A DNA stretch of 64,000 bases, from contig CM057059.1 in the NCBI GenBank assembly GCA_029945375.1, positions 3,410,001-3,474,000 of the forward strand, given 5' to 3'. Position numbers and translations under genes: made by a program. The notes under the pieces were generated by a model. That model was not told where the DNA came from. It ran no database searches and saw only the letters and a list, made by a program, of their open reading frames with translations. Numbering within the stretch: position 1 is the first letter of the stretch; each line of letters begins with the position of its first letter. Below are positions 2,620 through 28,720 of this stretch, in pieces. The DNA is from Agaricus subrufescens (taxonomy: Eukaryota; Basidiomycota; Agaricomycetes; Agaricales; Agaricaceae).

Positions 2620-2624
2620 GGTTC

Positions 2625-4474: not shown

Positions 4475-4932
4475 ATGACCACCTCGCAGCCTCTAGTCTG
4501 CACTTCCCTTCATGTAAGGTATCATCAGGTCAGTCATTACAATGCTAAAATAATTTTTAGTTACCACCAGATACACAACCCTTCCAATGCATATATGAGA
4601 TATCTTGGCATATATTTGCACCAAACCTTGACAGCCTCTGGATTGCGGTTGACAGCTTTTCGAACATTACTCCAGAGGCTATCAGAATATTCAATGAGAC
4701 ACGTATCATTCTACATGAGCTTATGAATGTCTACCAGGTGTTACTGGCTGCAAAAGATTTGGCAAGGTGGTACTTGGTGTTATTGGAGGCTGTGGAAGAG
4801 AACAATCTGACACATGACCCTGTGTATCATGTCAGCATTGGTGTGGAGATGGGTATGTGATGTTCCAATGAAGCCAAACAGGCCTTTTTTGCATTTTGTA
4901 AAGAATTGGAGAAGGCAATTGACTGAATAACA

Positions 4933-5319
4933 CATTGGGTGAATAACCCAGGATTAATTGTCCACAGTTCGTGTCGCAAATCAGGATTTGTGACAAATAA
5001 ACAGCTGATATAATAATTTTATTAATATAAACTGATTATCATGCGCTTATCTTATCTACATACGGACTGATAATCATGATTATTTAAGTGTGATTAAATA
5101 GCATGCTGTTACTTCATGCCATAATGAATACAAATAATCACGATAATAAATAATTGTGATTATATTATACACTGTTACCTCATCAGGTAATCAAGATACA
5201 AATAATCATGATTATGGCAACTTCAACTTTCCTGAGTGGCAGAGTGACTCATCAAATGTCCCCCGACACAACAAGGGTCTTTCAAGCCCTGTATAAACTA
5301 AGACCGGGCATCCACCAGA
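4933..5319 (+). repeat. Left arm (outer part) of the long inverted repeat
   Basis: Reverse-complement homology to 19190-19576. It includes ATAATCATGATTAT-type palindromes near 5090, 5140 and 5200. The arm continues beyond the Copia insertion at 18690. Confidence 0.8.
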
Positions 5320-5682
5320 TGTTGACGAAATACCTCGAGTTATACACTCAGTATGACATGTATGAGCAACTACTGTGCATTATGCACTATGCCACACCTT
5401 TTCAATCGTTTTATGCATGTTTACTGCGGACTCCTTCTGCAGACTCCTGTTTTACCTGTATGTTTCACAATACCCTTTACCACTATGAGGTTCTTTGTCA
5501 AGTATATAAACCCTACATGTATTCCATAGAATAACAGTTCAGTTTCCTCTCTCACTTTGCTCTACAAGCTCTCTCAGCTTTACCAACTCTATCTACTACC
5601 CCAATCCGCCTACTGCTTAGGATTATAACAATGTGAGTCTATCCGTCTCCATGCTGCAGGTAGCAGCTCTACTTTATCAACA
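5320..5682 (+). repeat. Copia 5' LTR
   Basis: Starts TGTTGACG and ends TATCAACA. TATATAAACCC at about 5505 is the probable core promoter for the element transcript. Confidence 0.93.
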
Positions 5683-5697
5683 GGTTATGGGCCCCGC
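5683..5697 (+). other. Primer binding site, half-tRNA-iMet type
   Basis: GGTTATGGGCCCCGC follows the 5' LTR directly. It starts like the primer site of Drosophila copia, which pairs with an internal fragment of initiator tRNA-Met rather than the tRNA 3' end. The assignment rests on that resemblance. Confidence 0.5.
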
Positions 5698-5884
5698 AAT
5701 CGCTCTTGCGTTTCCGGCTCGAGAAACGATCTGTGGATCTATTTTAGATCTCGCTTCTCCGAAGCTTGAGTTCTATATTTATCCCAATCGCTCGCTGTTG
5801 AAACGAGTTAATAGCCTTTGTTGGATTCTATATATAACCTTAGATAGAGTTTGTCGTACCCTAGATTACATTTACTGACTGCTG

Positions 5885-6727
5885 GGTTGCAGGGCCGCAA
5901 ACAGAATCTCCATCAACGCTCTCCCCAAACTCACTGGTGTCGACAACTGGGACAGTTGGTCACGCCGTGTTAGGAACGTCCTCATCTTGATGAGGCACCC
6001 TGATACCACCCTTACTGCATGGGAAGTCTCCGGGTCCGAGAAGACTTTACCTAGTCTTCCCATTCCCAAAGGCGAAGACAATGTCAATGGCTTTGAGGCT
6101 CTTGGAAAAGAGTCCGATGCCAGAGACGCTCTCTCCTTGCAGGCAACTGCAGTGATCGAGAGTGCCCTTCCCGATCATATGATCAGGGAAAGCTTCGCTG
6201 ACGCTAAGGCCCTCTGGACCAAGCTCAAAGAGACTTATGGGGTTTGTGGACCTTCCTTTGTCTATTCTAAGATGATGGAAGCCATGACATTTAAAGTTCC
6301 TGATGTAGCCGATCCATCTGGATCCATCGCGCATTTACGCACAATTTTCTCTCAAATCTCCGATGCGGGGGCTCCCATTCATGAGTCCCTTCAAGTGATG
6401 ATGCTACTTAACGCATTGCCACCACGCCTTGAAGGCGTGACTTCAGTCATGCTGGCCTCTGCAAAGAAGGTCACTGATATGGAGTTTGATGCCGCACGAG
6501 ATGCGATTATGGGTGCCTGGCGCAACCCTCATTCTACTGCTAATGCGGCCAAGTTTAGACAACAAGGCCAGCAGAAACCCCAGTGGAACCGTAACAACGG
6601 TCAACCACAAGCTTCTGGGTCGAAGCCTCCGGCTCCCCAACAACAGAAGCAGCAGCAGCAGAAGCCGGCCCAGCAGGGTCCTTCTGGCCAGAACAATGGC
6701 AATGTGAAGAAGCACAAGCGCACATGA
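5885..6727 (+). pseudogene. Copia Gag region
   Basis: The frame is open from about 5885, with L-P-K-L-T-G-V-D-N-W-D-S-W near the start, and stops at TGA 6725-6727. It shows a UBN2/Ty1-Gag-like helical region (A-L-W-T-K-L-K near residue 110). A Gln/Pro-rich, basic tail follows, ending K-K-H-K-R-T. After the TGA the same frame continues with G-R-G-K-G-K-G-K, so the stop probably replaced an Arg codon. No CCHC zinc knuckle is present. No clear initiator ATG in the first 30 codons was identified. Confidence 0.75.
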
Positions 6728-8390
6728 GGCCGAGGCAAAGGCAAGGGCAAGAACCAAGGTGGTGTCGCCCAAATTGAGGAAGTGCCTGCAGATTACAATG
6801 TGGCATCCGCAATCGCCTTCCCCATGGTAGCTGAAGCACTGGCTCCTTCCACATGCTCCCTGGTGGAGCGCATACATCAAGGAAAGGCTGAGAACATGAC
6901 GATGGGATCTACTCCTATCTCCGCTCCTTCCGGTGCGTTTTCTCCCATTCTTACTCCAGAGGAATATCACACTGACGAAATCGTTTATCCTGTTTTTTCA
7001 CCTACGGATTGCAATCGTCATTTCAATTGTGGTCATCTCACACACCCTTACTGCGATGGCCATAATTGTAATCATCTGAATCACTCCAATGACGATGAAC
7101 TTTCTGACCACTCGGACGCATCTAACCAATTTTATAATTGGATTTGCGAATGGCGGAATGATATTCCCCAATACTCGTCACCTACTCCGACCCCTGGAAC
7201 TTCTGTCTCCAATCCCATGGATGATGGAATATGGCTACCCGGTATGGATGGATATCCTGCCTGGACAATCCATGATCATTCCATTCGGGAATCGGAATAT
7301 GCCCATAATCAATGGGAACCCTTGGAACCCATGGATTACAAAATGACTCTGGAACTTCCTTCCGATGTCTATCATGGCTGGGCATTTGATGAAACGCCAC
7401 ATGGCTGGTCCCTGACTTCTGCGGATGTTGCACCTCCTGCCGTCCCACATTGGTCCGTGACTACCTTGGAAATCTATCGGATGTATGAATCTGATGATGA
7501 TGATAACCGCACAATCACATCTTCGGAAATTCGCAATGAACTCTATGGGGTTTGTGCGGATGATTCTATCCCTTATGATCAACAATCATTTGATTCCTGA
7601 CGTGGCTATTTCCGGCGCCTGCACATTCCTTGCGCACCGGAATCATCATATGATGGCGATGTTGATCTGGACTGGTATCATCGAACCAATCGCTGGGTTC
7701 ATGAATGCCGGAAATATTCCTTGATGCATGAATGGGTTCATGTCTACCCCATGAAATGCGAACATCCAGTTACACTTCAGTCTAACCTGGCACCGGATGT
7801 CTGGTCTATTGGGAAATATACCAATGGCCACGTCTTTTCATGGAACCCATATGGGAATTATGTGGACATCATGAAAACCCTATTGGCCATAACAGTTTGT
7901 AGGACAACTGATCCTCGTCTTCGGACTGGCAGGGTCACACCCTACCAAGAAGCCAAGCTGAAAGCCCTGCTTGCATGGGACAAACACTTGGGGGACATAG
8001 TTCTCAACCTCCTGGAAAGCATCGACATTGTCAAATCCGCATTCCCAGATAAAGGAATGGAATCCCCGATCGATCACACGATCGATGGCTTAGGGTCAAT
8101 GGAAGTTGTGGAGCAAGGACCTTCCCTTATCGATGAGAAGAAAGGACAAGATGAAGATTTAATCTCTCTTGGAGATGAAGAAGACGAGTATGATGGCGAT
8201 ATGGATACAAAGGAAGGGTCGTATGCGCAAGTGTCCCCATCCTCTTCACATGCCTCTACTAATCACATGTTTCAGATCTTACATGAATCCCGAGTTGCAA
8301 GCATGGGTCAATGCGCCCATTCGCCCCGAGGATCGACCGGACAAGAGTCAGTTGACGTACATTTGATGGATCGAGTTTTAGCTCTCTCTA
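6728..8390 (+). pseudogene. Copia central region of unknown type, no protease motif
   Basis: The Gag frame runs on through this region to about 8390 apart from TGA at 7598-7600, giving about 550 codons. The protein is acidic and rich in Asp, His, Asn and Tyr. A Cys/His cluster at about 7009-7086 (C-x5-C, then further C and H residues within about 25 residues) is the only motif-like part. The usual Copia protease (DSGA) and integrase zinc finger and first catalytic Asp are expected here and are not seen. It may be a captured or replaced segment; I do not recognise it. Confidence 0.45.
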
Positions 8391-8528
8391 CACTGGGACG
8401 GTGTCACAATAAGGCACCTGCCTTATTGAAACATTATTGATTTTTTTGTGACTTTTTGTGACTTTTGTCACGAATTTTTCAATATTTACTCAATAAGACA
8501 CGTGGCTTATTGTGACACCGGCCCAGTG
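8391..8528. mobile_element. 138-bp MITE inside the Copia
   Basis: The terminal inverted repeats begin CACTGGGACGGTGTCACAAT; the right end, read inverted, is CACTGGGCCGGTGTCACAAT. The direct repeat TCTA at 8387-8390 and 8529-8532 is the likely target duplication; only its TA may be diagnostic. There is no coding capacity. The inner part repeats TTTTTGTGAC. Confidence 0.75.
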
Positions 8529-8644
8529 TCTATGTATAATAGTCCAATTTGTAATATTTATGCAATGGAATCGAGTGCTAGAGGCGCTCTTCTCGATGAT
8601 CTGACACCCTTGTGTGAATCTTTCTTCATAAGTTTGACTAACTC

Positions 8645-9532
8645 TTGGCTACATCCACTGGCCAGAAAGTCATGCGACTACGCACTGATCGAGGAGGAGA
8701 ATACACTAGCAGAGTTCTAAAAGAATACTTAGCCGCAAACGGAATTCAGCATGAAATGTCGTCACCCCATGTTCATCAACAGAACGGTCGTGCGGAACGA
8801 CTTAATAGAACCTTGCATGAGAAATCACAAGCATTATGGTTGCAGGCATGCCTCCCGTATTCTTATTGGGAATTCTCTATGTCGTATGCGGTTTACATCT
8901 ATAATCGCACTCCAATGCAACGGTTAAAGTGGAAAACACCATTCGAATTGTTCTTCGGAACCAAACCAAACTTGTCCTTAATCCGAGTATTTGGATGTGG
9001 TGCACACGTGTATTTACCAGATGAGATCCAGCAGGATAAACTCTCTGCACATTCCGAACTTATGATATTTGTTGGCTATGATGGCACGAATTACAAGTTC
9101 ATCAGACACACTAAAAATAACACTGTGTTTATTGGCCCACATGCCATATTTGACGAATCATACTTTCCTAAATGTTCATCATCTAAACCAAGTAACCTCA
9201 AAAAACAAATTGATGAGGAACTTTCCAGGGATTCATCCCCTGACAAAACAAGTGATGAAACTCCGGACTTACCTAGTCCTTCACATCCTCGTGACCCTCC
9301 ACCGGGTCCTCCACCTGCTGCACCGCAGCAACCTCCTCATAATCCGCCTGATCCTCCGGCATCACCGCCGAGATCACCTCCTCCATCACCTGGTCCTTCC
9401 AGACCACAGCAAATTCCACAACAGGAAAAACCACAATGGAATAGAGGAAAAAGGCGTGCAGAATCACCACCTGATGAATCTGAAAGACCTCCACTCCAAC
9501 AATCGGAAAGAGAATCTCGAGTTCCTAACTGA
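8645..9532 (+). pseudogene. Copia integrase, C-terminal part of catalytic core
   Basis: The sequence enters the integrase core at T-G-Q-K-V-M-R-L-R-T-D-R-G-G-E-Y. This holds the second catalytic Asp, and the Glu follows in H-Q-Q-N-G-R-A-E-R. The GKNxxR-like region and a Pro-rich spacer follow, typical of Copia integrase C-termini. The first catalytic Asp is missing because sequence before about 8640 is not integrase. It stops at TGA 9530-9532 (V-P-N-stop-P-D-N-V-Y-G), and the same frame continues beyond. Confidence 0.85.
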
Positions 9533-10727
9533 CCGGATAATGTCTATGGCAATAAACCGCCAACTAAGATTCTTCGGGATTATGAGAAACAACCCTTCTT
9601 ACCTGAAATGGATGAACGGATCAGAAATAGAGTTCCTTCTAGATCTGATCGTCAGAAAGCCAGACTTCCTAATGATGACGTCACTGAACGTCGCGAAGAA
9701 ATTCGCCGACAATTTGACGAAGCCCAACAAAGGGCTGAAGATTGGGAAAAAGAACATGGCACTGAAATACCCCCCCGTACAATTCGGATCACGCCCTACT
9801 CCAAACCAGGAGGAGGATGACGACGATGACCAAATGGAGGATATTCAAGTTCTTCTCAGAGAAGGAGGAGTGAGGTTAAATAACTTTCTCTTCGAACTTG
9901 CAAACAAAATCCAAACACCGGTCCAATTTAAGGACTTGTCACAATTGCCTGCGGCAACGCGCAAAAAATGGATTGATGCTTGTTTAGAAGAATTAAAAGC
10001 CTTACAACAAAGAGGTGTCTATGAATTAGTGGATCTCCCGAAAGGTCGAAGAACCATTAAAAATAGATGGGTATTTAACGAGAAGAGTGATGGTCGCCTT
10101 CGGGCTCGACTGGTTGCTAAAGGATTCTCCCAAGTTGAGGGAATCAACTATAATGAATTATTCTCTCCAGTAGTCCACTACAAAACTGCTCGTCTTCTTT
10201 TCGGTGTTGTTGCCATGGAAGATTGGGATATGTTCAGTGTTGACGTTAAAACTGCCTATCTTTACGGCAAACTGGATGAAGAAATCTATATGTCACAACC
10301 AGAAGGATTTAAAGTTCCTGGAAAGGAAAATAAAGTCTGGAGACTACGCCATGCCCTATATGGCCTTAAACAAGCTGGATTAAGCTGGTGGAAAGAACTC
10401 ACCGCTAGTATGACAAAAATTGGTTTTACCCGATGTAAGTCCGATGCAGGCATATATTATTATCGACATCCTAAAACTTGTGAATTAGTTATCGCTGTAG
10501 TTTATGTTGATGACGTAGCCTTTTTAGGCAAAAAGAATTCTAAGCTCCTCCAAGAGTTGAAGCTAAAGTTTTCCACCAAATGGGAATGTTGTGATCAAGG
10601 CAAAATGACTGAGTTCCTCGGGATGCAAATCTCTAGAGATAGATCTCGTCGAAAAGTCTTTCTGCACCAGCAGAAGTACCTCCAGAAAGTACTTGATCGA
10701 TTCGGAATTAAATCTGGATCTGAAGAA
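9533..10727 (+). pseudogene. Copia reverse transcriptase, split by Gypsy
   Basis: The frame from 9533 to about 9820 carries a charged linker. RT homology then runs in a shifted frame, with the shift near the C-run at 9771-9778 and the GGAGGAGGATGACG stretch at about 9810. RT landmarks: R-L-R-A-R-L-V-A-K-G-F-S-Q near 10100, D-V-K-T-A-Y-L-Y-G near 10240, and the catalytic Y-V-D-D at 10503-10514, intact. It is interrupted after K-S-G-S-E-E by the Gypsy LTR at 10728. RNase H resumes at 17578. Confidence 0.88.
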
Positions 10728-11019
10728 TGTTACGATCTATTTTCGTCCCTGTCCCCTGACCCAGGACCATATGCCACCACTTCCTTATCTGTGTACTTGT
10801 CTCCCATGTTTACTCAGCACCGTTCTCACCGTTAGTCAGACACCTCGGGTATACTTACTCAGCCTGACTTCTACTTCTATTATTAGGTAGTCGACTTCTA
10901 TAAGTAGCGTAGTTATACTCTGTATTTCCTTACGCTTTACCAACTCGCTATATTCCCTTATTGCTCTCAAGTCTTTGCCTTAAGTTGCAAACTGAGCTAA
11001 TCGCTATAAGGTCGTAACA
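10728..11019 (+). repeat. Gypsy 5' LTR
   Basis: Starts TGTTACGATC and ends GGTCGTAACA. The following TTTGGTAAAGCGTCG may be a primer site (TGG-initial, tRNA 3'-end type). I cannot name the tRNA. Confidence 0.93.
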
Positions 11020-11097
11020 TTTGGTAAAGCGTCGTAAAGCTCACCTTGCAGAAAGACCTCTAGTCATTGAGGCAGGAAACCATGACAGGCTCAGTAT

Positions 11098-12228
11098 ATG
11101 AGCACAGACGACTCAGAAACATTCGGAATCGATTTTGAAACAGTTTTCTTCGAAGGACACCAAAGCGGAAACAGATTTGAAACCCTCAGACACGAGGAAG
11201 ACCAGGAAACAGAACCCCCATCCGAGAACGACGAACAGGAACCAGAAGAACCGGACCCAGAGCAAATACCGAAGAACACACCACTCGACGAAGACTTAAA
11301 CCGACTAGCAAGAGAACTTGAAGAACTAGAACTAAGAGAAATGGCAAACACCAACACCAAAACCAAAACCGCCAATGCAATCAACCACAAGGATGTTATG
11401 GAACCAGGATTTTTCCATGGAGATAGGAACAAATTTAACGACTGGTGGAGAGGAATGGAAATTTTCCTCAAGTTTAGCAAATACGACGACGCAGATTCAA
11501 AGATACTCCTCATCACCAACCGCTTGAGAGGAGAAATCCCAGGATGGTTTGCCAAACAATGGGAGGACAAGATCATCAAAGGAGATGACACCGCGGACTG
11601 GAAAGTCTTTGCCGAAGAAATTGTGGACGCCTTCTCACCCGGAAACGAACAACAGATCACCAAAGATAAGATTGAATCTTTCAAACAAGGAAATCTCCAC
11701 ACCAACGACTTCCTTGTCAAGTTCACCACCCTTGTCCATCAATCCAGATCTAGCAAAGACCACGCACTCTACCTCTTGAAACAACACACCAGATCAGACG
11801 TCATCCACCCCATTTTGGGATACCCCCTGAACACCATCCCCACTACCCTTAAAGGATGGATCGCTGCCATAGGATCTGTAGGAAAGGGATGGGAAGACAC
11901 CGAAAAATGACGAAACGATCATCGCACCGCTACAGGAGTCACTTACGGAGGAAACGGGCAACCCATGGAAATCGGAGCCAGAAAGCTGGAATGGTCCCCA
12001 GATGGGAAGCCCAAATGTCTCAAATGTGGCAAATTTGGCCACATAAAGAAGGAATGCCGAAACCAAGGATTTAGATCCAACATTGAATGCTACAATTGTG
12101 GCAAACCAGGCCACATCGCCAAAGTCTGCCGAAGCCCCAAGAAACAAACCAAGATCTGTGCCATCACCACCGGAGAAGAAGGGACCGTCGAAGAAGCCCA
12201 ACAGGATTTTCCCAAAGGTTCGGAGTAG
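11098..12228 (+). pseudogene. Gypsy Gag, two CCHC zinc knuckles
   Basis: ATG at 11098. An acidic N-terminal region is followed by a retrotransposon Gag domain (P-G-F-F-H-G-D, then W-F-A-K-Q-W-E and F-L-V-K-F-T-T-L). TGA at 11908-11910 interrupts, and the same frame continues with R-N-D-H-R. Two zinc knuckles follow, C-L-K-C-G-K-F-G-H-I-K-K-E-C and C-Y-N-C-G-K-P-G-H-I-A-K-V-C, so nucleic-acid binding is the expected role. It ends at TAG 12226-12228. Confidence 0.88.
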
Positions 12229-12299
12229 GCACGAACTCACGAACCAATGTATCTAGCCGTATGAGAAATCGATATGTTTGCCCTCAGAAACGACTAGGA

Positions 12300-12927
12300 G
12301 TGCAGGGGTTGATACTCAAACCAGAAATCACCAAACCCAACGGAGAAACGTTCCAAGCTAAAACCATGCTCGACTCTGGATGCACCCACACCTGCATCGA
12401 CAAGTGAACCGTCCATAAACAAAGAATTCCCACTCATAAACTCAACCACCCCATTCTGGCAACCAACACCGACGGAACCCCAAGCGGAAAGGAACCTATC
12501 ACCAAATTTGTCAATCTGGACCTAAACATAGAAGGACACCAAGAAACCATCGACGCAGTAGTAGCCGAACTAGACTCGGCAGATATCTTTATCGGACACG
12601 ACTGGCTAACCAAACACAACCCGGAAATCGACTGGAACAGAGGAACCATAACATTCTCAAGATGCCCGCCCGAATGCTCAATCAAACACACCAATTTCTC
12701 ACTCCCGGAACACCTACGACGGCTCCAAACCAAATGGGAAGACTTCGAAGAAGAAAAAGAACCCGACCCAACCAACCCTCTCGACCTACCAGACTACATG
12801 AGACCCTACATACACCCACCTCTTTAACAAAAAGAACTTCAACAAACTACCCAAACAAACCCAATGGGACCACGAGGTCAACCTACTACCGGACGCCCCT
12901 AATGAAATTGACGCAAAAGTCTACGAA
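12300..12927 (+). pseudogene. Gypsy aspartic protease region
   Basis: The active-site motif L-D-S-G-C-T-H-T-C-I-D lies at 12369-12401, followed by TGA at 12405. Beyond it, I-F-I-G-H-D-W-L near 12588 is the second conserved protease block. The region is broken by stops and frame changes relative to RT. Confidence 0.75.
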
Positions 12928-14574
12928 ATGACCCCAAAAGAGGAAATCAAACTCAATAAATTCCTGGACGAAAACCTTGCCACCAAGCGCATCCGACCAT
13001 CCAAAAGCCCCTACGCCGCTCCATGCTTCTTTGTACCAAAAAAGGACGGCTCACTAAGGTTGTGCCAAGATTATCACAAACTCAACACGGTTACCATAAA
13101 GGACAAAACCCCTCTGCCACTAATCAGCGAAGTCATCGGAAAACTGAAACACGCCAAATACTTCAATAAACTCGACATCATTTGGGGATACAACAATGTC
13201 CGAATCAAAGAAGGAGACAAATGGAAAGGTGCCATCCTCACTAATTGCGGACTTTTCGAACCAATGGTAATGTTTTTCGGAATGTGCAACTCACCAGCTA
13301 CCTTCTCTCGTTGGATGACCACCATCTTCCGAGAAATGATCCAAGACAGTTCACTAGTCAACTACATAGACAATTTCGCCATTCCTGCCAACTCCCTACC
13401 CGGACTGGAAGAACAAACATTACGATTTCTAAAAATAGCGGACGAAAACAACCTGTGTTTCAAACGAACCAAATGTGAATTCAATGCAACCAAGATCTCG
13501 ATGCTCGGAACGGTCATTGGAGACGGCCAAGCAAGCATGGAAACCAAAAAGGTTGAATCGGTTCGAAACTGGAAAACGCCAACCTGCGTAAAGGACATCG
13601 AACGGTTCATTGGTTTCGCAAACTTCTATCGACAATTTATCCAGGACTTTAGCACTCTCGCTGCACCGCTCAATGCCTTGAAGGGAGGTAAAACACCAAA
13701 ACCCTGGAAATGGACTGCCGAGGAGCAAAATGCCTTCGAAGCCATCAAAACCGCCATCACCAATGAACCCGTCCTAGCCCTACCAGACAACGAAGGAAAA
13801 TTCAGACTCGAAACCGATGCATCTACTGTGGGAATTGGAGCAGTCCTATCTCAAGAACAAGAAGGAAAATGGCACCCAGTCGCCTTCATGTCCAAGGCTC
13901 TCACCGACACAGAAAAGAACTACGAAATCTACAACAAAGAGCTCCTCGCCATAATCAAGGCAATCAAGAACTGGAGACATTACCTGCTAGACGCCAAACA
14001 TCAATTCGAAATCTGGACCGACCACGAAAACCTCAAATACTTCCACGAACCACAAAAGCTAAATGCCTGCCAAGCCCGATGGTATCTCATGCTCCAAGAA
14101 TACGACTACTTACTCCGACACATTCCCGGCAAAACAAATGTCAAAGCTGACATCCTATCCAGACTTTTCCAACATGAAACCCCTGAAGAAGAAACCCAAA
14201 TCGAGATGTTCAAGGACCGCATTATCCTACGAACCCTATCCGAAATTCCCACCTCACTAGAAACCACCATGCTACTAAATCGAAACTTCTCCATCTCCGC
14301 AGACTCCAACATCCTGAAACAGATCTGTAACTCCGACCAACAAGAACACCACGTCACACAAGAAAGAAGCAAAAGACCCGACCAATTCTGGGAAGAAAAT
14401 GGCATAACCTACCGAAACGGAAAAATCTATGTTCCAGATGAACCCAAACTCAGAGAATCCATACTTTCGGACCACCACGACCCACCCAATATCGGACACC
14501 CCGGATCCTACTGCATGCTCGGACTCGTGAAACGAACTTTCTGGTGGCCCACAATCAAAACGGACATCAAATGA
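12928..14574 (+). pseudogene. Gypsy RT-RNase H with altered catalytic box
   Basis: An open frame of 548 codons. RT landmarks: R-I-R-P-S-K-S-P-Y-A-A-P near residue 25, F-F-G-M-C-N-S-P-A-T-F near 115 and Y-I-D-N at 13363-13374, where active Gypsy RTs have Y-x-D-D. The second catalytic Asp is Asn here (AAT). RNase H follows, with the catalytic region E-T-D-A-S near residue 295 and W-T-D-H-E-N-L near 365. The H2C2 integrase finger starts before TGA 14572-14574, and the same frame continues as F-V-K-G-C-T-E-C. Confidence 0.9.
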
Positions 14575-15720
14575 TTCGTGAAAGGATGTACCGAATGCCA
14601 GAAAAATAAAATCAATCGACAACCCAGTCACACACCCCTCAAACCGCTACCCATCCCCGAAGCACCATGGCAAGAAATATCCATAGACATGATCAGCCCC
14701 CTACCCAAGTCCGAGGACCATGACGCCATACTCATAGTAGTCGACCGATTCTCCAAAATGATCCACCTCATCCCCACTGAAACCTCTCTCATGTCGAGAC
14801 AACTGGCTGAGATCTACAAGAAAGATATCTGGCGCATACACAGAATACCCAAGCGCGTTATCAGTGACAGAGGCCCCCAATTCGCCTCCAAATTCATGAA
14901 AGAGTTATGCTCCGCTCTAGGAATTGAAAGGAATCTATCCACTGCCTACCACCCCCAAACCGATGGCCAAACCGAAAGGATCAACCAGGAAGTCGAATCC
15001 TACCTACGAAACTTTGTCAACTACAAGCAGAATGACTGGGCAAAATGGCTTCCCACTGTGGAATTCCAATACAATGACAAAACCCACACCGCAACCAAGC
15101 AAACCCCATTCTTCCTCACATATGGTACCCACCCGTGGAAGGGAAACCTAACCGTTAACTCGGATAACCCCTTGGCCAACGAATTCACCGCAGAATTAGA
15201 AAAAGCCCGAATTGAAGCACGAGCAGCTCTAGAAGAATACAACTCCATCATGTCCGAATGCGGAAGTCTGAAATGGCAAAAGAACCCTTTATCCAAAGGA
15301 GACTTGGTCTTCCTAGAAGCAACAAACATACGATCAAATCGACCTTCAGGAAAATTCGACAACAAAAGATACGGACCCTTCGAAATTCTAGAACCCATTG
15401 GAGAAACCTCGTTCCGTCTAAAATTACCTGAAACCTGGGCTATACACGACGTTTTCCACTCATCGCTTCTCACCAAATTCAATGAACCCAAATTCAACTG
15501 TCAAAAAACTCCACCTCCACCCCCTCCGGATATTATTAACAATGAAGAAGAATACGAAGTAGAGGAAATCTGTGGACATAGGAAGAAAGGCCGTGGAACT
15601 CAATACTTGGTACATTGGAAAGGCTATGACAACTCCGAGGATACGTGGCAATCCGCAGTAGACCTTGAGAACGCACAGGACCTTCTATCCGAATATAGAA
15701 AACACAACAACCTCCTGTGA
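14575..15720 (+). CDS. Gypsy integrase with C-terminal chromodomain
   Basis: Continues the polymerase frame after the stop at 14572. C-T-E-C-Q-K-N-K completes the H2C2 finger. The core has D-R-F-S-K-M near 14743, S-D-R-G-P-Q-F near 14863 and Q-T-E-R-I-N-Q-E near 14970, so all three acidic residues are present. The chromodomain lies at about 15550-15710 (E-V-E-E-I, Y-L-V-H-W-K-G-Y, E-D-T-W). This marks a chromovirus-type integrase, likely steered to heterochromatin marks. It ends with TGA at 15718. Confidence 0.88.
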   Translation, partial: FVKGCTECQKNKINRQPSHTPLKPLPIPEAPWQEISIDMISPLPKSEDHDAILIVVDRFSKMIHLIPTETSLMSRQLAEIYKKDIWRIHRIPKRVISDRGPQFASKFMKELCSALGIERNLSTAYHPQTDGQTERINQEVESYLRNFVNYKQNDWAKWLPTVEFQYNDKTHTATKQTPFFLTYGTHPWKGNLTVNSDNPLANEFTAELEKARIEARAALEEYNSIMSECGSLKWQKNPLSKGDLVFLEATNIRSNRPSGKFDNKRYGPFEILEPIGETSFRLKLPETWAIHDVFHSSLLTKFNEPKFNCQKTPPPPPPDIINNEEEYEVEEICGHRKKGRGTQYLVHWKGYDNSEDTWQSAVDLENAQDLLSEYRKHNNLL

Positions 15721-17283: not shown

Positions 17284-17577
17284 TGTTACGATCTATTTTC
17301 GTCCCTGTCCCCTGACCCAGGACCATATGCCACCACTTCCTTATCTGTGTACTTGTCTCCCATGTTTACTCAGCACCGTTCTCACCGTTAGTCAGACACC
17401 TCGGGTATACTTACTCAGCCTGACTTCTACTTCTATTATTAGGTAGTCGACTCTTCTATAAGTAGCGTAGTTATACTCTGTATTTCCTTACGCTTTACCA
17501 ACTCGCTATATTCCCTTATTGCTCTCAAGTCTTTGCCTTAAGTTGCAACCTGAGCTAATCGCTATAAGGTTGTAACA
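17284..17577 (+). repeat. Gypsy 3' LTR
   Basis: Nearly identical to 10728-11019. It differs by a 2-bp insertion (TCGACTCTTC), one A/C change and one CG/TG change. A purine-rich tract (GAATGGAGGGTGA) precedes it. Confidence 0.93.
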
Positions 17578-18310: not shown

Positions 18311-18326
18311 TCTACTCAAGGAGGAG

Positions 18327-18689
18327 TGTTGATGAAATACCTCGAGTTATACACTCGGTATGACGTGTATGAGCAACTACTGTGCATTATGCACTATGCC
18401 ACACCTTTTCAATCGTTTTATGCATGTTTACTGTGGACTCCTTCTGCGGACTCCTGTTTTACCTGTATGTTTCACAATACCCTTTACAACTATGAGGTTC
18501 TTTGTCGAGTATATAAACCCTACATGTATTCCATAGAATAACAGTTCAGTTTCCTCTCTCACTTTGCTCTACAAGCTCTCTCAGCTTTACCAACTCTATC
18601 TACTACCCCAATCCACCTACTGCTTAGGATTATAACAATGTGAGTCTATCCGTCTCCATGCTGCAGGTAGCAGCTCTACTTTATCAACA
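18327..18689 (+). repeat. Copia 3' LTR
   Basis: 363 bp. It differs from the 5' LTR at 8 sites, 7 of them CpG versus TpG or CpA. Confidence 0.93.
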
Positions 18690-18888
18690 CCAGAGCCATC
18701 CCCAATTTTCATGTATGAATGTGGGATGTATGTGTGTGCAAGTGCATGTGTGTGTGTGTGCATATGCATGTGGTAGAGAGAAAAGAGGGACTGTAATGTG
18801 TGACATAGCCGCTGTCATCATTCATTAAGTCACTCTTATGAGACATTTCCCACGCTTTTGTCATCAAGACAATTCCAAGATTTTGTGA
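18690..18888 (+). repeat. Left arm (inner part) of the long inverted repeat
   Basis: Continues the left arm after the Copia (shared CCAGA). It pairs with about 18975-19190. A TG-rich microsatellite lies at 18720-18775. Confidence 0.75.
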
Positions 18889-18974
18889 ATTGTAGGTGAC
18901 AATTTGCAGTTCAATTGAACCAAATGTTAAGGATTTAATTAGCCCACCTGGCTACTGAAATTCTTCACTGTTAA

Positions 18975-19576
18975 TCGCAAAAATCTTTGTTGGGAATACT
19001 TGATGACAATGGTGTGGGAACTGTCTCATAAGAGTGACTTAACAAATGATGACAGCAGCTATGTCACACGTTACAGTCCCTCTTTTCTCTCTACCACACA
19101 CATATGCACACACACACACATGCACTCACACACACATGCACCCTATGTTCATACATGAACATTGGGGCTGGCTCTGGTGGATCCCCAGTCTTAGTTTATA
19201 CAGGGCTTGAAAGACCCTCATCATGTCGGGGGACAGCTGGGTATTTGGTGAGTCACTCTGCTACTCAGGAAAGTTAGAGTTACCATAATCATGATTATGA
19301 TAACCACAATTATGTTAATCACGATTATTTATTATCGTGATTATTTGTATCTGGGATGAGGTAATAATATATAACCATGCTTGATAATCGTGATTCATTG
19401 TATCTTGATTACCCGATGAGGTAACAGTGTAATACATAATCATGCTTAAATAATCGTGATTATCAGTATTGTGATTAGCTTATATTAATAAAATAGTATT
19501 ATATCAGCCGATTATTTGTCGTAAATCATGATTTGCGACATGAACCGCTGCTGATAATCCCCGGTTATTCCATCCC
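18975..19576 (-). repeat. Right arm of the long inverted repeat
   Basis: Inverted counterpart of 4933-5319 plus 18690-18888. It has the complementary AC-rich microsatellite at 19078-19140 and palindromic AATCATGATT/AATCGTGATT units at 19285-19470. Confidence 0.8.
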
Positions 19577-20169
19577 TGAATAACAACAGTCACGGGCACT
19601 AGTAAGCAGATTACATTTTTCTAGAGAAACTTAGCATGCTGAAGAACGATTTCAGAACATAGAAAAGGCTCCAAATCCTTGTTGACCTCTTCCCAGAATA
19701 CTCAATTAGTCTCGGAGATCTATAGTGCCATCAATGAATGTAATGGATTATTGCAACAATGTCATGCCCATTTTGCGCAAGTATTAGAGCAGACTCGAAA
19801 TGAACATTCTGTCGACACTGACCCACCATCCAAAGAAGAGACACAAGTGATGCGTGCAAAATGGCAAACGTTCTTCGATACGATAGGAGAACTAAAGGTA
19901 CACGCGTACAGAATTGCTGATGGCATACTATATGAATCATCATGAGTCTTTAAAACATCAGGGTATTCATTGTCTTAACAATGAGCAGGGATACTGGGTG
20001 ACTTGCCGCAGGATTTAGAAAATCTAAACTTGCTGTAAACCTTATTTAGTTTCGTACTCCGACGACTACATAAATTATGTGAAACCGCAGGCCATGTTCT
20101 AAAATATAAATACATAAATGATAGTGATGTAATCGGCTTTTACTTACAGCCGATCTTATCTTTCTCTAA

Positions 20170-21553
20170 ATGGCCGACTCCCGATTTTATGAAGACGACG
20201 AAGAGGACATGGAGGAACTTCTGCAGATGCAGGAGGTGATACACCAACTGTGCATGATGGAGGAAGAAGACGAGGACGAGCTTGTAATGATTGCAGTGGC
20301 GGCATTAGCATTGGTAGATCAGATGGCCAGGGATACTCGGAATGCACAACGATCACAACGTCGTCAAGGTCTTCTACGCTCCGACTTGATTGACAATCCG
20401 AGAGCAGAGACTCCTTGGCAGGTGCTTTATCGAGCACAGAATCCCCCCAGTTTCATCACCACAATGGGCTTCGATCCCATCACATTTCAACGTATACTCG
20501 ATGCAGGGTTTAATCATTTATGGGAAAGTACAACTATTGCCCGTACTGGCACCAATGTCAATGGAATTCCGCGCCCAACCCGACGTTCATTAGATGGTGC
20601 TGGAGGGCTTGGCTTGCTCTTGCATTATCTAAACTCGACGATGAATGAGATAAGTCTGTGCGAGATCTTTGCCCTGATCCCCTCTTCAGTCAATCGATAT
20701 CTTACCTTTTCCTTACCAATTCTGGTTAAAACACTCCGCCATATGCCAGACGCTCGTGTCGTCTTTCCAAAAGGAGATGAATTCGATCATCTCAATCAAC
20801 TTATCCTCCAAAGGCACCCTCTCTTGGTAGGCGCTTTTGGAAGTATGGATGGGTTAAACCTACCTGTCCAAACAGCAGCTGACGAAGATCTTGAAAATGC
20901 AACATACAATGGATGGCTACATTCACACTTTGTGAGCTGTGTGTATGCATTCGCAGCTGATGGTAAGCATTTATCTATTCGGGGTTTTTTATCTATTGAA
21001 GTATAAGCTATCAGGAACTATAATAGCGTGTAGCCTGAATGCACCAGGCAGTTGGCACGACAGCCGCATAGCCAAACCAATTTATAAAAAACTGATCAAT
21101 GATACTCCTGCCGGTTACTACCTTGTAACTGACACTGCCTTCCCACGCGGAGCAGGATTACTTGAAGGAAAAATTCAGTCACCTCTCAAGCAAAAGGAGA
21201 AGTTGCCGGATGATGAAGAAGAATGAAATAACCTGCTTTCATTTAATAGACAACTTCTTTCATATAGACAGACAGCCGAGTGGGGTATGCGAGCCCTACA
21301 AGGCTCATTCAGCAGGCTCCGTATACCCCTCCCAATCAACCACCAGGAACGCCGATCATGGATTCTTGAAGCGATCACACGTCTCCACAATCTTCGCACT
21401 CGAGCTATTGGCATCAATCAAATACGGTCCGTGTATATGCCAATGTGGAATGATGATGAAGACTTTTTGCTCACCTTTCAAAATATGGCATTCTCTGCTT
21501 TGAGAAAAAATGACTGTGTTACACGGTTTCATGTGGAGGCGGTCAGAATGTAG
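20170..21553 (+). pseudogene. Harbinger transposase with in-frame TGA (copy 1)
   Basis: ATG at 20170. Exon 1 runs to 20962 and a 52-nt intron spans 20963-21014 (GTAAGC...TATCAG). Exon 2 continues from 21015. Catalytic residues: Asp in F-G-S-M-D-G (codon 20848) and Asp in P-G-S-W-H-D-S (codon 21059). The Glu in Q-T-A-E-W-G (codon 21278) lies after TGA 21224-21226. The frame stays open after the TGA to TAG 21551-21553 and contains conserved family sequence (F-N-R-Q-L-L-S-Y-R-Q). The truncated product therefore lacks the third catalytic residue. An alternative in-frame intron at 21202-21249 would remove the stop, but also conserved residues, and has a poor donor. Confidence 0.9.
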
Positions 21554-21708
21554 CAGCCATGTAACATTAGTAAGATAGTAGAGTAAACAAATGATGTGAA
21601 ATGTGAACTAGATCAAGCCGTAATGACAGGGGGTACTGTAGATAAAAAGTCCGGTCATTTAGATTAGATGAAAGTAAATTAGTGAACGACTAGTGAGCGA
21701 AAAAATGA

Positions 21709-23389
21709 TTACAATTCTTGGCTAACTTCAGAGAACGCCTCCTCAACCTCCCCTTGTGCTGGTTGGGATCCTGAAGCGATGCCTGTCGACCTCGGGTCAG
21801 GGTAAGTGAATCTCCGTGTCCCGGGGCTATCATTGAGCCCCAGGTACTCATTATTATCGGTATCACTATCATTTTGACTGATCCATTGAGTAGACCTTCC
21901 ACCACAGGAGTAATAAATATCTTGCCTGATAGGACTCCTCCGGCGTGGGGGTGAGCTTGGAGCGAAGGGGTTGGGAGATCTTCTGCGAGAAGCTCTCACT
22001 TCCCTCTCATATGAACGCTGCATCTCGAACATTCGGGCACAAAAATTGTCAGCCCGGCGATTCGCTTCAATGAGCTGACGATTGGATTCACGAAGCTGAG
22101 AGGTCAGCGCAAAGATCTGCTGAGTCTGCGAGATCTGGCTAGCGATTTCATTGTGGCGAGTTTGACGAGAAGAGGGGTCGAGGGCCAGCCCGATGGTATT
22201 GAGTAAGGCCTGGCTGGTATTGCGAGAAGACACACAGCTAGCGGGAGGTGGAACAGACCGGGCACACCTGCGCTTAGCGACCCATTTCCCCTCAGCTGGG
22301 GCCTCTTCCTTTACAGCCACAATCTCCTCATTTGTAACCTCTTCAATCTCGTCGAGAACCTTGGTGTCTTCATCGGCATCCTCGATCTCATCATCCAACT
22401 CCATAGTCCCAGCCTTCCCATTAATATCTTCATTGATTTCTAAGGCGTGCTCGACGTTCTGAGGGACTTTCGGATTTCCTGTAGGCTTCGTCGTATTACA
22501 GAGCTACCAGACATCTGTTAGATATCTACTCGAATATTTCAATAAACACATACCTGTTTGAACTTCGCTTCCAGCGCTCGAGCACCACGTATGGTGCGCC
22601 CATTCTCCTTACAGTAAGCCGTAAACTCCTCTTCAACCTTCTCCCATTCATTATTACAGATCGGAAGGTACTTCTCTATGAGATCAAGCAAGAGATCTAA
22701 CTCGGCCTTTGTATATCCCAAGCACCCCTGTTGACGGCCGCGTCGACCTGACTTAGCACGCTTCGGTGCTGGTTCCTTCGCTGTAGTGCACTTTGACGTT
22801 TGTTCATTCGCCTTAGCGTGCTTGGGGGCGGGCTCCTCAGGCGCTGCTGAGGACGCTTTACGCTTGGTTGAAGAACTCGAAGCGGCCGGCTCAACAGCCT
22901 TCACCTTTCCTTTACCTTTTATAGGGTGGCGTGCGCCTGCAATTTTTGCTACTGGCTGAGCGGTGCGAGCCCGCAATGCACGTTTGACGATAGTATCGGC
23001 GGATGGTAAGTCATCGGAGTCCTGATCGGTGGGTAATGAAGGCGGCCCAGAGTTGGCGGATTGGTGGGATGCGCTCAGTTGCACAGGGGGTTGTGACAAT
23101 GGATAATGTGTGGGCGGATTCTCCTGTAGACCCTGCGATGGAAAGGAATGATAAGAAAACCCCTGAGCCAACTGGCTAGGGGCTGGGAAATTATAGGCAG
23201 GTGGAGCCGATAGGTTATATGGCGGGAGAGCCTATATATATCTGATGTGAAATTTGATAATCACACTTATTTAAGAACACATACTGATTGACTTGGGGTG
23301 TGAACGCCCGAAGGGGGAATGATTTGACTCTGGGTAGCGAAGGCGGCACTAGATGGAGCACCAGCCATCGGAGCAGTGTACTGAGCCAT
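21709..23389 (-). CDS. Harbinger SANT/Myb-like DNA-binding protein (copy 1)
   Basis: Three exons: 23285-23389, 22554-23231 and 21709-22503, giving 525 aa. ATG is at 23389. The middle holds a Myb/SANT-like domain (G-Y-T-K-A-E-L-D-L-L-L, N-E-W-E-K-V-E, then K-F-K-Q joined across the intron to L-C-N-T). Upstream is a Lys/Ala-rich basic stretch; downstream is a coiled-coil-like segment (Q-T-Q-Q-I-F-A-L-T-S-Q-L-R-E-S-N). Such partner proteins bind terminal repeats and help the transposase reach the nucleus and the ends. The frame is intact. Splice sites are inferred from consensus and frame. Confidence 0.85.
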
Positions 23390-25101
23390 AGGATAAATAA
23401 AAGTTAGAGTGAGTGATAAATACGCAAACGAAAGTTGAGGTTGTTGAGGTGGGCTCCTCTGTCCTGCTTGCTTAAATAGATCTGTTTTTGTGCTTTGTGC
23501 TCAACATGTGCAGACCTCGGATTGTCAAGACGTAGTTGATTACTCTTCCATTATATTAATTGCACTTCATTAAGGATCCCTATGGATGTGAGATTGATTG
23601 ATGTGCCATGGTGGTAGATCAATCATACTTGAAATAGGGCAATTTACGTCTATAGCTATATGTAAACTCATGGGATTGTCGAGCATGAGGCTGTTTCTAT
23701 TGTGAAATAACAACAATCCCTGGCAGTAGTTACTCGTGAAACACTTTCATTCCGCAGAGGCAACGAACGGCTGGCGCTACATTATCTTTCAACTGTAATA
23801 TCAAATATCACAAACCGAATATAGATGTTATCACACGACCCAAACCAAATATAGGTGTTATCACACGACACCCTGAGGACGATGGATCTTACACGTGGGC
23901 ATTTAGTGTGTGAAACTACGATTAGCCGAGTTTGCAGCGTCTAGAATTCTGGAAGGGGGGGGGCCTCCTCTAGATTTAAGGTTTGAAAAGTAGCTGTTTT
24001 CAAGACCAGCTCAGGGTGAGGCTCAATTTGGGGAGCGGATAGTTCCGCCGTACGAAATATTTCCATTTAAGTAATTTAGAAATTTGAAATTTAGAAACTT
24101 GGCTCTGCGGCAAGTCACCCACTCATAAAGATACATCGGGAAGCCCCAAAAAACAACCTAATGTTCCCTTATGGCATATCATTTTTCCACGCAAAGATCA
24201 GCAAGATTCGGTCCGCTCTCAAGATGGAGTGGGGGTACCGAGGCAATTCACTGATCCTGGTGTGGCCACGCTTACTCCTGGTAGCTTTCAGGAGATATCG
24301 ATGAATGGGGTCAATCTAGTAGACGCCACACAGTGGCAGCAGGTACTTGAGGGTAGACCTATTGGGTGACTTGCCGCAGAGCCAAGTTTCTAAATTTCAA
24401 ATTTCTAAATTACTTAAATGGAAATATTTCGTACGGCGGAACTATCCACTCCCCAAATTGAGCCTCACCCTGAGCTGGTCTTGAAAACAGCTACTTTTCA
24501 AACCTTAAATCTAGAGGAGGCCCCCCCCCCCCCCCCTTCCAGAATTCTAGACGCTGCAAACTCGGCTAATCGTAGTTTCACACACTAAATGCCCACGTGT
24601 AAGATCCATCGTCCTCAGGGTGTCGTGTGATAACACCTATATTTGGTTTGGGTCGTGTGATAACATCTATATTCGGTTTGTGATATTTGATATTACAGTT
24701 GAAAGATAATGTAGCGCCAGCCGTTCGTTGCCTCTGCGGAATGAAAGTGTTTCACGAGTAACTACTGCCAGGGATTGTTGTTATTTCACAATAGAAACAG
24801 CCTCATGCTCGACAATCCCATGAGTTTACATATAGCTATAGACGTAAATTGCCCTATTTCAAGTATGATTGATCTACCACCATGGCACATCAATCAATCT
24901 CACATCCATAGGGATCCTTAATGAAGTGCAATTAATATAATGGAAGAGTAATCAACTACGTCTTGACAATCCGAGGTCTGCACATGTTGAGCACAAAGCA
25001 CAAAAACAGATCTATTTAAGCAAGCAGGACAGAGGAGCCCACCTCAACAACCTCAACTTTCGTTTGCGTATTTATCACTCACTCTAACTTTTATTTATCC
25101 T

Positions 25102-26782
25102 ATGGCTCAGTACACTGCTCCGATGGCTGGTGCTCCATCTAGTGCCGCCTTCGCTACCCAGAGTCAAATCATTCCCCCTTCGGGCGTTCACACCCCAAGT
25201 CAATCAGTATGTGTTCTTAAATAAGTGTGATTATCAAATTTCACATCAGATATATATAGGCTCTCCCGCCATATAACCTATCGGCTCCACCTGCCTATAA
25301 TTTCCCAGCCCCTAGCCAGTTGGCTCAGGGGTTTTCTTATCATTCCTTTCCATCGCAGGGTCTACAGGAGAATCCGCCCACACATTATCCATTGTCACAA
25401 CCCCCTGTGCAACTGAGCGCATCCCACCAATCCGCCAACTCTGGGCCGCCTTCATTACCCACCGATCAGGACTCCGATGACTTACCATCCGCCGATACTA
25501 TCGTCAAACGTGCATTGCGGGCTCGCACCGCTCAGCCAGTAGCAAAAATTGCAGGCGCACGCCACCCTATAAAAGGTAAAGGAAAGGTGAAGGCTGTTGA
25601 GCCGGCCGCTTCGAGTTCTTCAACCAAGCGTAAAGCGTCCTCAGCAGCGCCTGAGGAGCCCGCCCCCAAGCACGCTAAGGCGAATGAACAAACGTCAAAG
25701 TGCACTACAGCGAAGGAACCAGCACCGAAGCGTGCTAAGTCAGGTCGACGCGGCCGTCAACAGGGGTGCTTGGGATATACAAAGGCCGAGTTAGATCTCT
25801 TGCTTGATCTCATAGAGAAGTACCTTCCGATCTGTAATAATGAATGGGAGAAGGTTGAAGAGGAGTTTACGGCTTACTGTAAGGAGAATGGGCGCACCAT
25901 ACGTGGTGCTCGAGCGCTGGAAGCGAAGTTCAAACAGGTATGTGTTTATTGAAATATTCGAGTAGATATCTAACAGATGTCTGGTAGCTCTGTAATACGA
26001 CGAAGCCTACAGGAAATCCGAAAGTCCCTCAGAACGTCGAGCACGCCTTAGAAATCAATGAAGATATTAATGGGAAGGCTGGGACTATGGAGTTGGATGA
26101 TGAGATCGAGGATGCCGATGAAGACACCAAGGTTCTCGACGAGATTGAAGAGGTTACAAATGAGGAGATTGTGGCTGTAAAGGAAGAGGCCCCAGCTGAG
26201 GGGAAATGGGTCGCTAAGCGCAGGTGTGCCCGGTCTGTTCCACCTCCCGCTAGCTGTGTGTCTTCTCGCAATACCAGCCAGGCCTTACTCAATACCATCG
26301 GGCTGGCCCTCGACCCCTCTTCTCGTCAAACTCGCCACAATGAAATCGCTAGCCAGATCTCGCAGACTCAGCAGATCTTTGCGCTGACCTCTCAGCTTCG
26401 TGAATCCAATCGTCAGCTCATTGAAGCGAATCGCCGGGCTGACAATTTTTGTGCCCGAATGTTCGAGATGCAGCGTTCATATGAGAGGGAAGTGAGAGCT
26501 TCTCGCAGAAGATCTCCCAACCCCTTCGCTCCAAGCTCACCCCCACGCCGGAGGAGTCCTATCAGGCAAGATATTTATTACTCCTGTGGTGGAAGGTCTA
26601 CTCAATGGATCAGTCAAAATGATAGTGATACCGATAATAATGAGTACCTGGGGCTCAATGATAGCCCCGGGACACGGAGATTCACTTACCCTGACCCGAG
26701 GTCGACAGGCATCGCTTCAGGATCCCAACCAGCACAAGGGGAGGTTGAGGAGGCGTTCTCTGAAGTTAGCCAAGAATTGTAA
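25102..26782 (+). CDS. Harbinger SANT/Myb-like DNA-binding protein (copy 2)
   Basis: Exons 25102-25206, 25260-25937 and 25988-26782. The product appears identical to that of copy 1 (525 aa). See copy 1 for domains. Confidence 0.85.
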
Positions 26783-26937
26783 TCATTTTTTCGCTCACTA
26801 GTCGTTCACTAATTTACTTTCATCTAATCTAAATGACCGGACTTTTTATCTACAGTACCCCCTGTCATTACGGCTTGATCTAGTTCACATTTCACATCAT
26901 TTGTTTACTCTACTATCTTACTAATGTTACATGGCTG

Positions 26938-28321
26938 CTACATTCTGACCGCCTCCACATGAAACCGTGTAACACAGTCATTTTTTCTCAAAGCAGAGAA
27001 TGCCATATTTTGAAAGGTGAGCAAAAAGTCTTCATCATCATTCCACATTGGCATATACACGGACCGTATTTGATTGATGCCAATAGCTCGAGTGCGAAGA
27101 TTGTGGAGACGTGTGATCGCTTCAAGAATCCATGATCGGCGTTCCTGGTGGTTGATTGGGAGGGGTATACGGAGCCTGCTGAATGAGCCTTGTAGGGCTC
27201 GCATACCCCACTCGGCTGTCTGTCTATATGAAAGAAGTTGTCTATTAAATGAAAGCAGGTTATTTCATTCTTCTTCATCATCCGGCAACTTCTCCTTTTG
27301 CTTGAGAGGTGACTGAATTTTTCCTTCAAGTAATCCTGCTCCGCGTGGGAAGGCAGTGTCAGTTACAAGGTAGTAACCGGCAGGAGTATCATTGATCAGT
27401 TTTTTATAAATTGGTTTGGCTATGCGGCTGTCGTGCCAACTGCCTGGTGCATTCAGGCTACACGCTATTATAGTTCCTGATAGCTTATACTTCAATAGAT
27501 AAAAAACCCCGAATAGATAAATGCTTACCATCAGCTGCGAATGCATACACACAGCTCACAAAGTGTGAATGTAGCCATCCATTGTATGTTGCATTTTCAA
27601 GATCTTCGTCAGCTGCTGTTTGGACAGGTAGGTTTAACCCATCCATACTTCCAAAAGCGCCTACCAAGAGAGGGTGCCTTTGGAGGATAAGTTGATTGAG
27701 ATGATCGAATTCATCTCCTTTTGGAAAGACGACACGAGCGTCTGGCATATGGCGGAGTGTTTTAACCAGAATTGGTAAGGAAAAGGTAAGATATCGATTG
27801 ACTGAAGAGGGGATCAGGGCAAAGATCTCGCACAGACTTATCTCATTCATCGTCGAGTTTAGATAATGCAAGAGCAAGCCAAGCCCTCCAGCACCATCTA
27901 ATGAACGTCGGGTTGGGCGCGGAATTCCATTGACATTGGTGCCAGTACGGGCAATAGTTGTACTTTCCCATAAATGATTAAACCCTGCATCGAGTATACG
28001 TTGAAATGTGATGGGATCGAAGCCCATTGTGGTGATGAAACTGGGGGGATTCTGTGCTCGATAAAGCACCTGCCAAGGAGTCTCTGCTCTCGGATTGTCA
28101 ATCAAGTCGGAGCGTAGAAGACCTTGACGACGTTGTGATCGTTGTGCATTCCGAGTATCCCTGGCCATCTGATCTACCAATGCTAATGCCGCCACTGCAA
28201 TCATTACAAGCTCGTCCTCGTCTTCTTCCTCCATCATGCACAGTTGGTGTATCACCTCCTGCATCTGCAGAAGTTCCTCCATGTCCTCTTCGTCGTCTTC
28301 ATAAAATCGGGAGTCGGCCAT
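26938..28321 (-). pseudogene. Harbinger transposase with in-frame TGA (copy 2)
   Basis: Mirror of copy 1: ATG at 28321, intron 27477-27528, and the same TGA at 27265-27267 before the catalytic Glu. The shared lesion shows that the stop existed before at least one of the two insertions. The transposase was therefore supplied in trans, or the stop is bypassed. Confidence 0.9.
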
Positions 28322-28720
28322 TTAGAGAAAGATAAGATCGGCTGTAAGTAAAAGCCGATTACATCACTATCATTTATGTATTTATATTTTAGAACATGGC
28401 CTGCGGTTTCACATAATTTATGTAGTCGTCGGAGTACGAAACTAAATAAGGTTTACAGCAAGTTTAGATTTTCTAAATCCTGCGGCAAGTCACCCATTAC
28501 AAATAGTGCTCCATCAAATATTGGGACAAGAAACAAAGTGACGGTCCTGTTCCGGCGGGGGGTCCTCCGACACATCAATAGTTCAACCTCTCCTCGGGAT
28601 GTCTCAGGAAGACCCGACACAAGTGACAGTACACCTGTCACTACTGCACCTGTATCTAAGGTCTCGTTCTGGAGAAAGATCTTCCGCTGGACCGGATGCG
28701 GTTCAAGTACGCCATTCTGA

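What the first reader, a model, noticed from the sequence alone, without database searches (positions are those of the whole stretch)
4475..28720. One gene exploded over 24 kb by nested insertions, with exons and reading frame still traceable
Exons 1-4 of a FWRK-family gene lie in order at 4475-4513, 4561-4932 + 19586-19601, 19656-19941, and 19989-19995 + 24124-24363 + 28499-28720. Removing a long-TIR element (with Copia, Gypsy and a MITE nested inside) and two Harbingers, with one copy of each TSD, rejoins 394 codons. Intron phases match three intact paralogs. The nesting is host exon > TIR element > Copia > Gypsy/MITE. An automatic annotator would miss this gene.
Basis: seen in the sequence. 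Interest (0 to 1): 0.85.

Follow-up and report, generated by a model that had tools for sequence, protein, structure and literature searches.

The report
Mushroom pseudogene split by nested transposons
A mushroom gene of unknown function has been broken into pieces spread over 24 kb by six jumping elements, some nested inside others, and it also carries ordinary disabling mutations, so it is a well-preserved dead gene rather than a hidden working one.

Summary
The anatomy is real and accurately placed. Each piece over 15 nt, aligned on its own, falls on consecutive stretches of an intact relative (C4b) in the same genome: CDS 1-39, 40-414, 415-430, 431-716, 724-963, 966-1182. The breaks coincide with elements flanked by target duplications: a ~1.3-kb foldback TIR element (7 bp) holding Copia (5 bp), which holds Gypsy (5 bp) and a MITE; and two Harbinger-like elements (3 bp each). 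It is a pseudogene. Its nearest relatives are two genes on contig 4, not the window's three. A second decayed copy lies upstream at about 3.2-4.06 kb. Left of the TIR element the copy keeps 2 of 13 CpGs (intact relatives 10 of 12, 10 of 11); right of it 4 of 11 in all three. Both stops lie on the left and fit decay of methylated CpG, though methylation was not measured. Whether stops or insertion came first is unresolved. New member of a known kind.

The parts
4475..4513 (+). exon 1 of the broken copy (13 codons)
   Evidence: 87% to C4b CDS 1-39; GT donor follows
4561..4932 (+). exon 2, first part; in-frame TGA at 4858-4860 and 4924-4926
   Evidence: 76% to C4b CDS 40-414; stops
4933..19578 (.). 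TIR (foldback) element, about 1.3 kb without its guests; 7-bp duplication AATAACA on both sides
   Evidence: six other copies found, their ends printed; duplication
5320..18689 (+). Copia-type LTR retrotransposon inside the TIR element; 363-bp LTRs 97.8% identical; duplication CCAGA
8390..8529 (.). 140-bp hairpin MITE inside Copia
   Evidence: arms; 21 other places in the genome, some partial
10728..17577 (+). Gypsy-type LTR retrotransposon with chromodomain inside Copia; LTRs 99.3% identical; duplication AAGAA
18690..19578 (.). right part of the TIR element; with the hairpin 18688-19179
   Evidence: 18688-19200 collinear with the uninterrupted C7 copy, 93% over 513 columns
19586..19601 (+). 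exon 2, last 16 nt
   Evidence: maps to C4b CDS 415-430, directly after 414; not significant by itself
19656..19941 (+). exon 3; followed by ATGAGT in place of a GT donor
   Evidence: 81% to C4b CDS 431-716
19989..19995 (+). exon 4, first 7 nt
   Evidence: position only
19996..24120 (+). Harbinger-like element 1, duplication ACT
24124..24363 (+). exon 4, middle part
   Evidence: 73% to C4b CDS 724-963
24364..28495 (-). Harbinger-like element 2, inverted, 99.98% identical to element 1, duplication ATT
28499..28720 (+). exon 4, last part with the end stop codon
   Evidence: 79% to C4b CDS 966-1182
36215..37544 (-). intact relative pC, 4 exons, 389 aa
38534..39837 (-). intact relative pB, 381 aa
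41121..42454 (-). intact relative pA, 388 aa

Best explanation
A member of a duplicated, fast-diverging gene family, whose only database relatives found are Agaricus bisporus proteins, was destroyed in stages. A ~1.3-kb foldback TIR element inserted near the end of exon 2; Copia later inserted into that element, and Gypsy and a MITE into Copia; two near-identical Harbinger-like elements inserted in exon 4 (all shown by structure), the second probably a local hop of the first (inferred). In addition the part left of the TIR element, like a neighbouring decayed copy and the TIR element itself, is poor in CpG. Both nonsense codons lie in this zone and fit deamination of methylated CpG in a silenced repeat domain (inferred). 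The result is a non-functional pseudogene.
For: Pieces abut on C4b. Target duplications and the same element ends in other TIR copies. The C7 TIR copy is continuous across the Copia site. Stops and donor. CpG observed/expected 0.20 in 4475-4932 and 0.21 in 3199-4060 against 0.57-0.82 in exons 3-4. Left-part CpGs kept: 2/13 against 10/12 (p=0.0012) and 10/11 (p=0.0006) in intact C4a and C4b, whose reference pairs include gene D; right part 4/11 in all three. [quoted passage not shown] three basidiomycetes of one survey show only CpG transition signatures in TEs, very weak in two (PMC4352252, passages seen).
Against: The left-right contrast within the broken copy itself is weak: p=0.36, 0.05 and 0.025 with three reference sets. 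CpG transitions are also over-represented in intact C4a as a whole (9/46 against 12/230, p=0.003) and in the right part of C4a and C4b. No methylation data exist for this organism. The assembly could not be checked against reads.
Confidence: 0.88

Rival explanations
1. Insertion first (a sub-case of the best explanation): the TIR element broke a working gene; methylation of the element and of the neighbouring decayed copy then eroded exons 1-2, producing the stops.
For: CpG loss beyond that of intact relatives is seen left of the insertion point and not right of it, so its border coincides with the element. Exon 3 and the two large exon 4 pieces (748 nt) hold no internal stop. Two of five other TIR copies have CpG-poor sequence on one side only: L046 0.89/0.19, L054 0.38/0.91.
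Against: The 4858 TGA is also present at the aligned place in psi1. Intron 3 lost its donor although it lies outside the eroded zone. The other three TIR copies have similar values on both sides (0.65/0.53, 0.24/0.32, 0.00/0.08), and flanks may themselves be repeats.
Confidence: 0.45
2. Stop first (the other sub-case): the gene was already a pseudogene, perhaps before it and psi1 duplicated, and the elements landed in dead DNA.
For: psi1 and the broken copy share the TGATGTTCC stretch where C4a and C4b read otherwise, and group together with support 89.
Against: Without CpG-touching columns the grouping falls to 67, and the informative non-CpG sites split 5 (psi1 with the broken copy), 7 and 4 among the three groupings. 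CpG sites can mutate in parallel. Codon changes on this branch are 53 replacement to 36 silent, below the neutral ratio of 1.9-3.1 computed per piece under assumed weights, which suggests constraint over much of the branch, but intact branches range from 0.80 to 3.38.
Confidence: 0.35
3. The gene still works, with the elements removed as very long introns.
For: Introns 1 and 2 keep GT-AG; the lengths of the pieces keep the phase.
Against: Two in-frame stops in host sequence, no GT donor at intron 3, and the element borders fall at target duplications and not at splice sites.
Confidence: 0.02
4. A mosaic: pieces of different family members brought together by recombination between elements, or an assembly error.
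For: Two 4.1-kb near-identical inverted elements are a hazard for assembly; the left and right parts differ in CpG content.
Against: All five larger pieces have a C4 gene as best match among the five references tried, and the pieces abut without overlap on C4b; the five insertions into the gene, the TIR element and Copia have matching target duplications.
Confidence: 0.04

Closest known systems
Pseudogenes made by transposon insertion, with nested (layered) insertions (known kind, from recall)
   Same: host exons split at target duplications; younger elements inside older ones
   Different: here six elements in one short gene, with exon order and phase still traceable; not different in kind
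C4b, intact gene on contig 4 of the same genome (393 aa)
   Same: same four exons and phases; 73-87% nucleotide identity to the five larger pieces
   Different: open frame, no insertions
Agaricus bisporus uncharacterised proteins such as AGABI2DRAFT_119063 and 119064
   Same: homologous, 41-51% identity over 60-84% of C4b (11 hits)
CpG transition decay of methylated repeats in basidiomycetes (PMC4352252, passages)
   Same: loss of CpG as TG and CA
   Different: methylation is not measured here

Membership tests
pseudogene | homology to intact genes over the coding length | tested here: met
pseudogene | disabling lesions independent of the insertions | tested here: met
   two in-frame TGA and a non-GT donor
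pseudogene | no transcript or product | not testable with these tools
   no expression data
Copia LTR retrotransposon | paired LTRs, 5-bp duplication, gag_2, integrase and RVT_2 domains (features recalled) | tested here: met
   the rve hit is below the Pfam cut-off, gag_2, SH3_retrovirus and RVT_2 are above
Gypsy LTR retrotransposon | paired LTRs, 5-bp duplication, RT-RNaseH before integrase (features recalled) | tested here: met
PIF/Harbinger | short TIRs and 3-bp duplication (features recalled) | tested here: met
   16 matching bases GGGTGACTTGCCGCAG at both ends; ACT and ATT
PIF/Harbinger | DDE transposase and Myb-like protein (features recalled) | tested here: inconclusive
   no Pfam hit for the single ORF 20170-21003 scanned, later exons not scanned; Myb-like hit E=0.0094 below cut-off
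hAT (for the TIR element) | 8-bp target duplication (recalled) | tested here: not met
   7 bp in the window; read by eye from the flanks: 7 bp in four of five independent other copies, one of the four with a mismatch, none in the fifth
MITE | short hairpin in many copies | tested here: met
   140 bp; 21 other places, some partial
ClyA-type helical pore-forming fold (for the gene family) | same fold | tested here: inconclusive

The most novel reading that the evidence does not exclude
A TIR insertion acts as a one-sided border of a CpG-mutating, presumably methylated domain, so that the exons on one side of the element are eroded to nonsense while those on the other side of the same gene, a few tens of bases away before the insertion, stay at the level of intact relatives. 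The element would then kill a gene twice: by insertion and by local mutation.
Probability: 0.3. Interest if true: 0.45.

Novelty: new member of a known kind. Interest (0 to 1): 0.28.

Why it matters
It is a clean, layered record of gene death in a mushroom: order of insertions, paralogous empty sites and point decay can be read at one place. The CpG contrast across the element makes it a possible test case for whether transposon methylation spreads mutations into neighbouring exons. It adds no new kind of system.

Tried and rejected
Dating the second stop by the target duplication: at first the duplication looked like TGAATAACA, which would have put the stop before the insertion (note). The flanks of other copies show that the right-hand TG belongs to the element and the duplication is 7 bp, so the argument was dropped.

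Dating the first stop by its presence in psi1: inconclusive once CpG-touching sites are removed.

A CpG excess specific to the whole broken gene: not found; intact C4a shows a similar ratio, 3.8 against 3.1. Only the left part differs from intact relatives.

Function of the family: Pfam gave no hit above its cut-off for nine proteins over two calls; a profile search of solved structures gave one weak match, E=0.1; the fold search gave helical-bundle matches near the level expected without true relatives. PMC12543289 was searched for four terms and two passages were seen, none on CpG. The paper searches were seen as listings with starts of abstracts; three papers were then opened for passages. 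No listed title deals with this gene family; that is not proof of absence.

Full report
What is there. The window is C3:3410001-3474000 of a 44.65-Mb genome in 44 contigs. Three intact genes, pA, pB and pC, lie on the minus strand at 36.2-42.5 kb, each with four exons and phases 0, 1, 2.

The exploded copy. Each piece was aligned on its own to the coding sequence of five intact relatives (C4b, C4a, D, pA, pC; pB was left out). On C4b, a 393-aa gene on contig 4, the pieces fall at 1-39, 40-414, 415-430, 431-716, 724-963 and 966-1182; the 7-nt piece fits 717-723 by position only, and as tried (9 nt) it aligned elsewhere. Scores against the best of 100 shuffles: exon 1 60.5/36.0, exon 2a 422/64.5, exon 3 386.5/66.5, exon 4b 252.5/60.5, exon 4c 239.5/46.0; the 16-nt piece (18/18) and the start of exon 4 (11/14.5) are not significant by themselves. 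C4b and C4a are nearer to each of the five larger pieces than pA or pC, save that C4a, which is shorter in exon 4, gives 61% for exon 4b against 65% for pC.

The insertions. The TIR element spans 4933-19578 with AATAACA on both sides. Six other copies of about 1.2-1.3 kb were found, of which two (C10, C28) have identical flanks; of the five independent ones four show a 7-bp duplication, one of them with a mismatch, and one does not (read from the printed flanks). Copia lies at 5320-18689 (CCAGA; LTRs 355 of 363 identical), Gypsy at 10728-17577 (AAGAA; LTRs 290 of 292 aligned bases identical, 2 gap bases), both with typical domains. The sequence left and right of Copia is continuous in the uninterrupted C7 copy, which also shows that the hairpin at 18.69-19.18 kb is part of the TIR element. 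The MITE in Copia is 8390-8529, with 21 other places in the genome, some partial. The two Harbinger-like elements, 19996-24120 and 24364-28495, agree at 4124 of 4125 aligned bases with 7 gap bases and point in opposite directions; for the first 209 bases, the only part searched, the next best matches are 97%.

Lesions. Exon 2 has in-frame TGA at 4858-4860 and 4924-4926; intron 3 begins ATGAGT; introns 1 and 2 are GT-AG. Exon 3 and the two large exon 4 pieces have no internal stop in the family frame. On the branch of the broken copy, at codons where C4a and C4b agree, there are 53 replacement, 36 silent and 1 nonsense differences (14 of these codons differ at more than one base); neutral ratios computed per piece with weights that I assumed (transitions 3, CpG transitions 15) are 1.9-3.1. 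This points to a gene that was constrained for much of its separate life, with low power, since intact branches range from 0.80 to 3.38.

CpG. In 212 windows of 600 bp the median CpG observed/expected is 0.81; all ten below 0.4 lie at 2.4-5.1 kb and 18.3-19.5 kb. Left of the TIR element the broken copy keeps 2 of 13 CpGs shared by C4a and C4b; intact C4a keeps 10 of 12 CpGs shared by C4b and D, and C4b 10 of 11 shared by C4a and D; right of it all three keep 4 of 11. With those same pairs that include D the broken copy keeps 1 of 11 and 1 of 10 on the left and 5 of 12 and 5 of 11 on the right. The direct left-right comparison within the broken copy is weaker (p=0.36, 0.05, 0.025). CpG transitions are also in excess in the right part of intact C4a and C4b (p=0.001 and 0.04). 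In A. bisporus CpG methylation matches annotated repeats nearly perfectly (PMC7473861, passages), and the three basidiomycetes of one survey showed only CpG transition signatures, very weak in two (PMC4352252, passages).

Neighbourhood. A second decayed copy, psi1, lies at about 3196-4060; an intact gene D ends at window position 357, and further family members or fragments sit upstream on C3 and on C1, C2, C4 and C22, with weaker matches on C7, C8 and C13.

The protein family. No Pfam family passes its cut-off. A model of A. bisporus P0001 shows long helices over residues 19-235 and a disordered tail; matches to solved helical bundles, among them ClyA-type proteins and a pink Pleurotus protein, are weak. 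Function is not inferred from this.

Order of events. The nesting fixes TIR before Copia before Gypsy and MITE. LTR identities and the near-identity of the Harbingers suggest that Copia is older than Gypsy and the Harbingers (inference; no rate is known). Whether the stops came before or after the TIR insertion is open: the shared TGA in psi1 argues for before, the CpG border at the element for after, and both arguments are weak.

Verdict. A correct and careful observation of structure; the claim of a surviving reading frame fails. It is an ordinary kind of gene death, unusually legible.

Noticed in passing
window 3196-4060: A second decayed copy of the same family, CpG observed/expected 0.21, with indels, directly upstream.
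   Followed up: yes
window 19996-28495: Two Harbinger-like elements 99.98% identical and inverted, 241 bp apart; over the 209 bases searched, nearer to each other than to any other copy found, as in a local hop.
   Followed up: partly
window 2400-5100 and 18300-19500: CpG-poor island covering psi1, exons 1-2 of the broken copy and the TIR element.
   Followed up: yes
L043 (C8:2573391-2574666): A TIR element copy lies inside another cluster of distant members of the same gene family (C8:2534861-2577737).
   Followed up: no
L018, L019, L020: Nearly identical copies of another family member on C22, C1 and C2; the C22 copy seems to lack one base in exon 2 and its match is split.
   Followed up: no
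window 49812-60363: Three related genes with a GPAGVGKSA P-loop, minus strand, two of them apparently interrupted; NACHT-like by recall, no domain search run.
   Followed up: no
window 29480-29780: A direct repeat of roughly 140 bp in two copies downstream of the broken gene (seen by eye).
   Followed up: no
P0001 (A. bisporus homologue), model: The family is predicted as a bundle of long helices with a disordered tail; weak fold matches include ClyA-type proteins and a pink Pleurotus protein (8ii8).
   Followed up: partly
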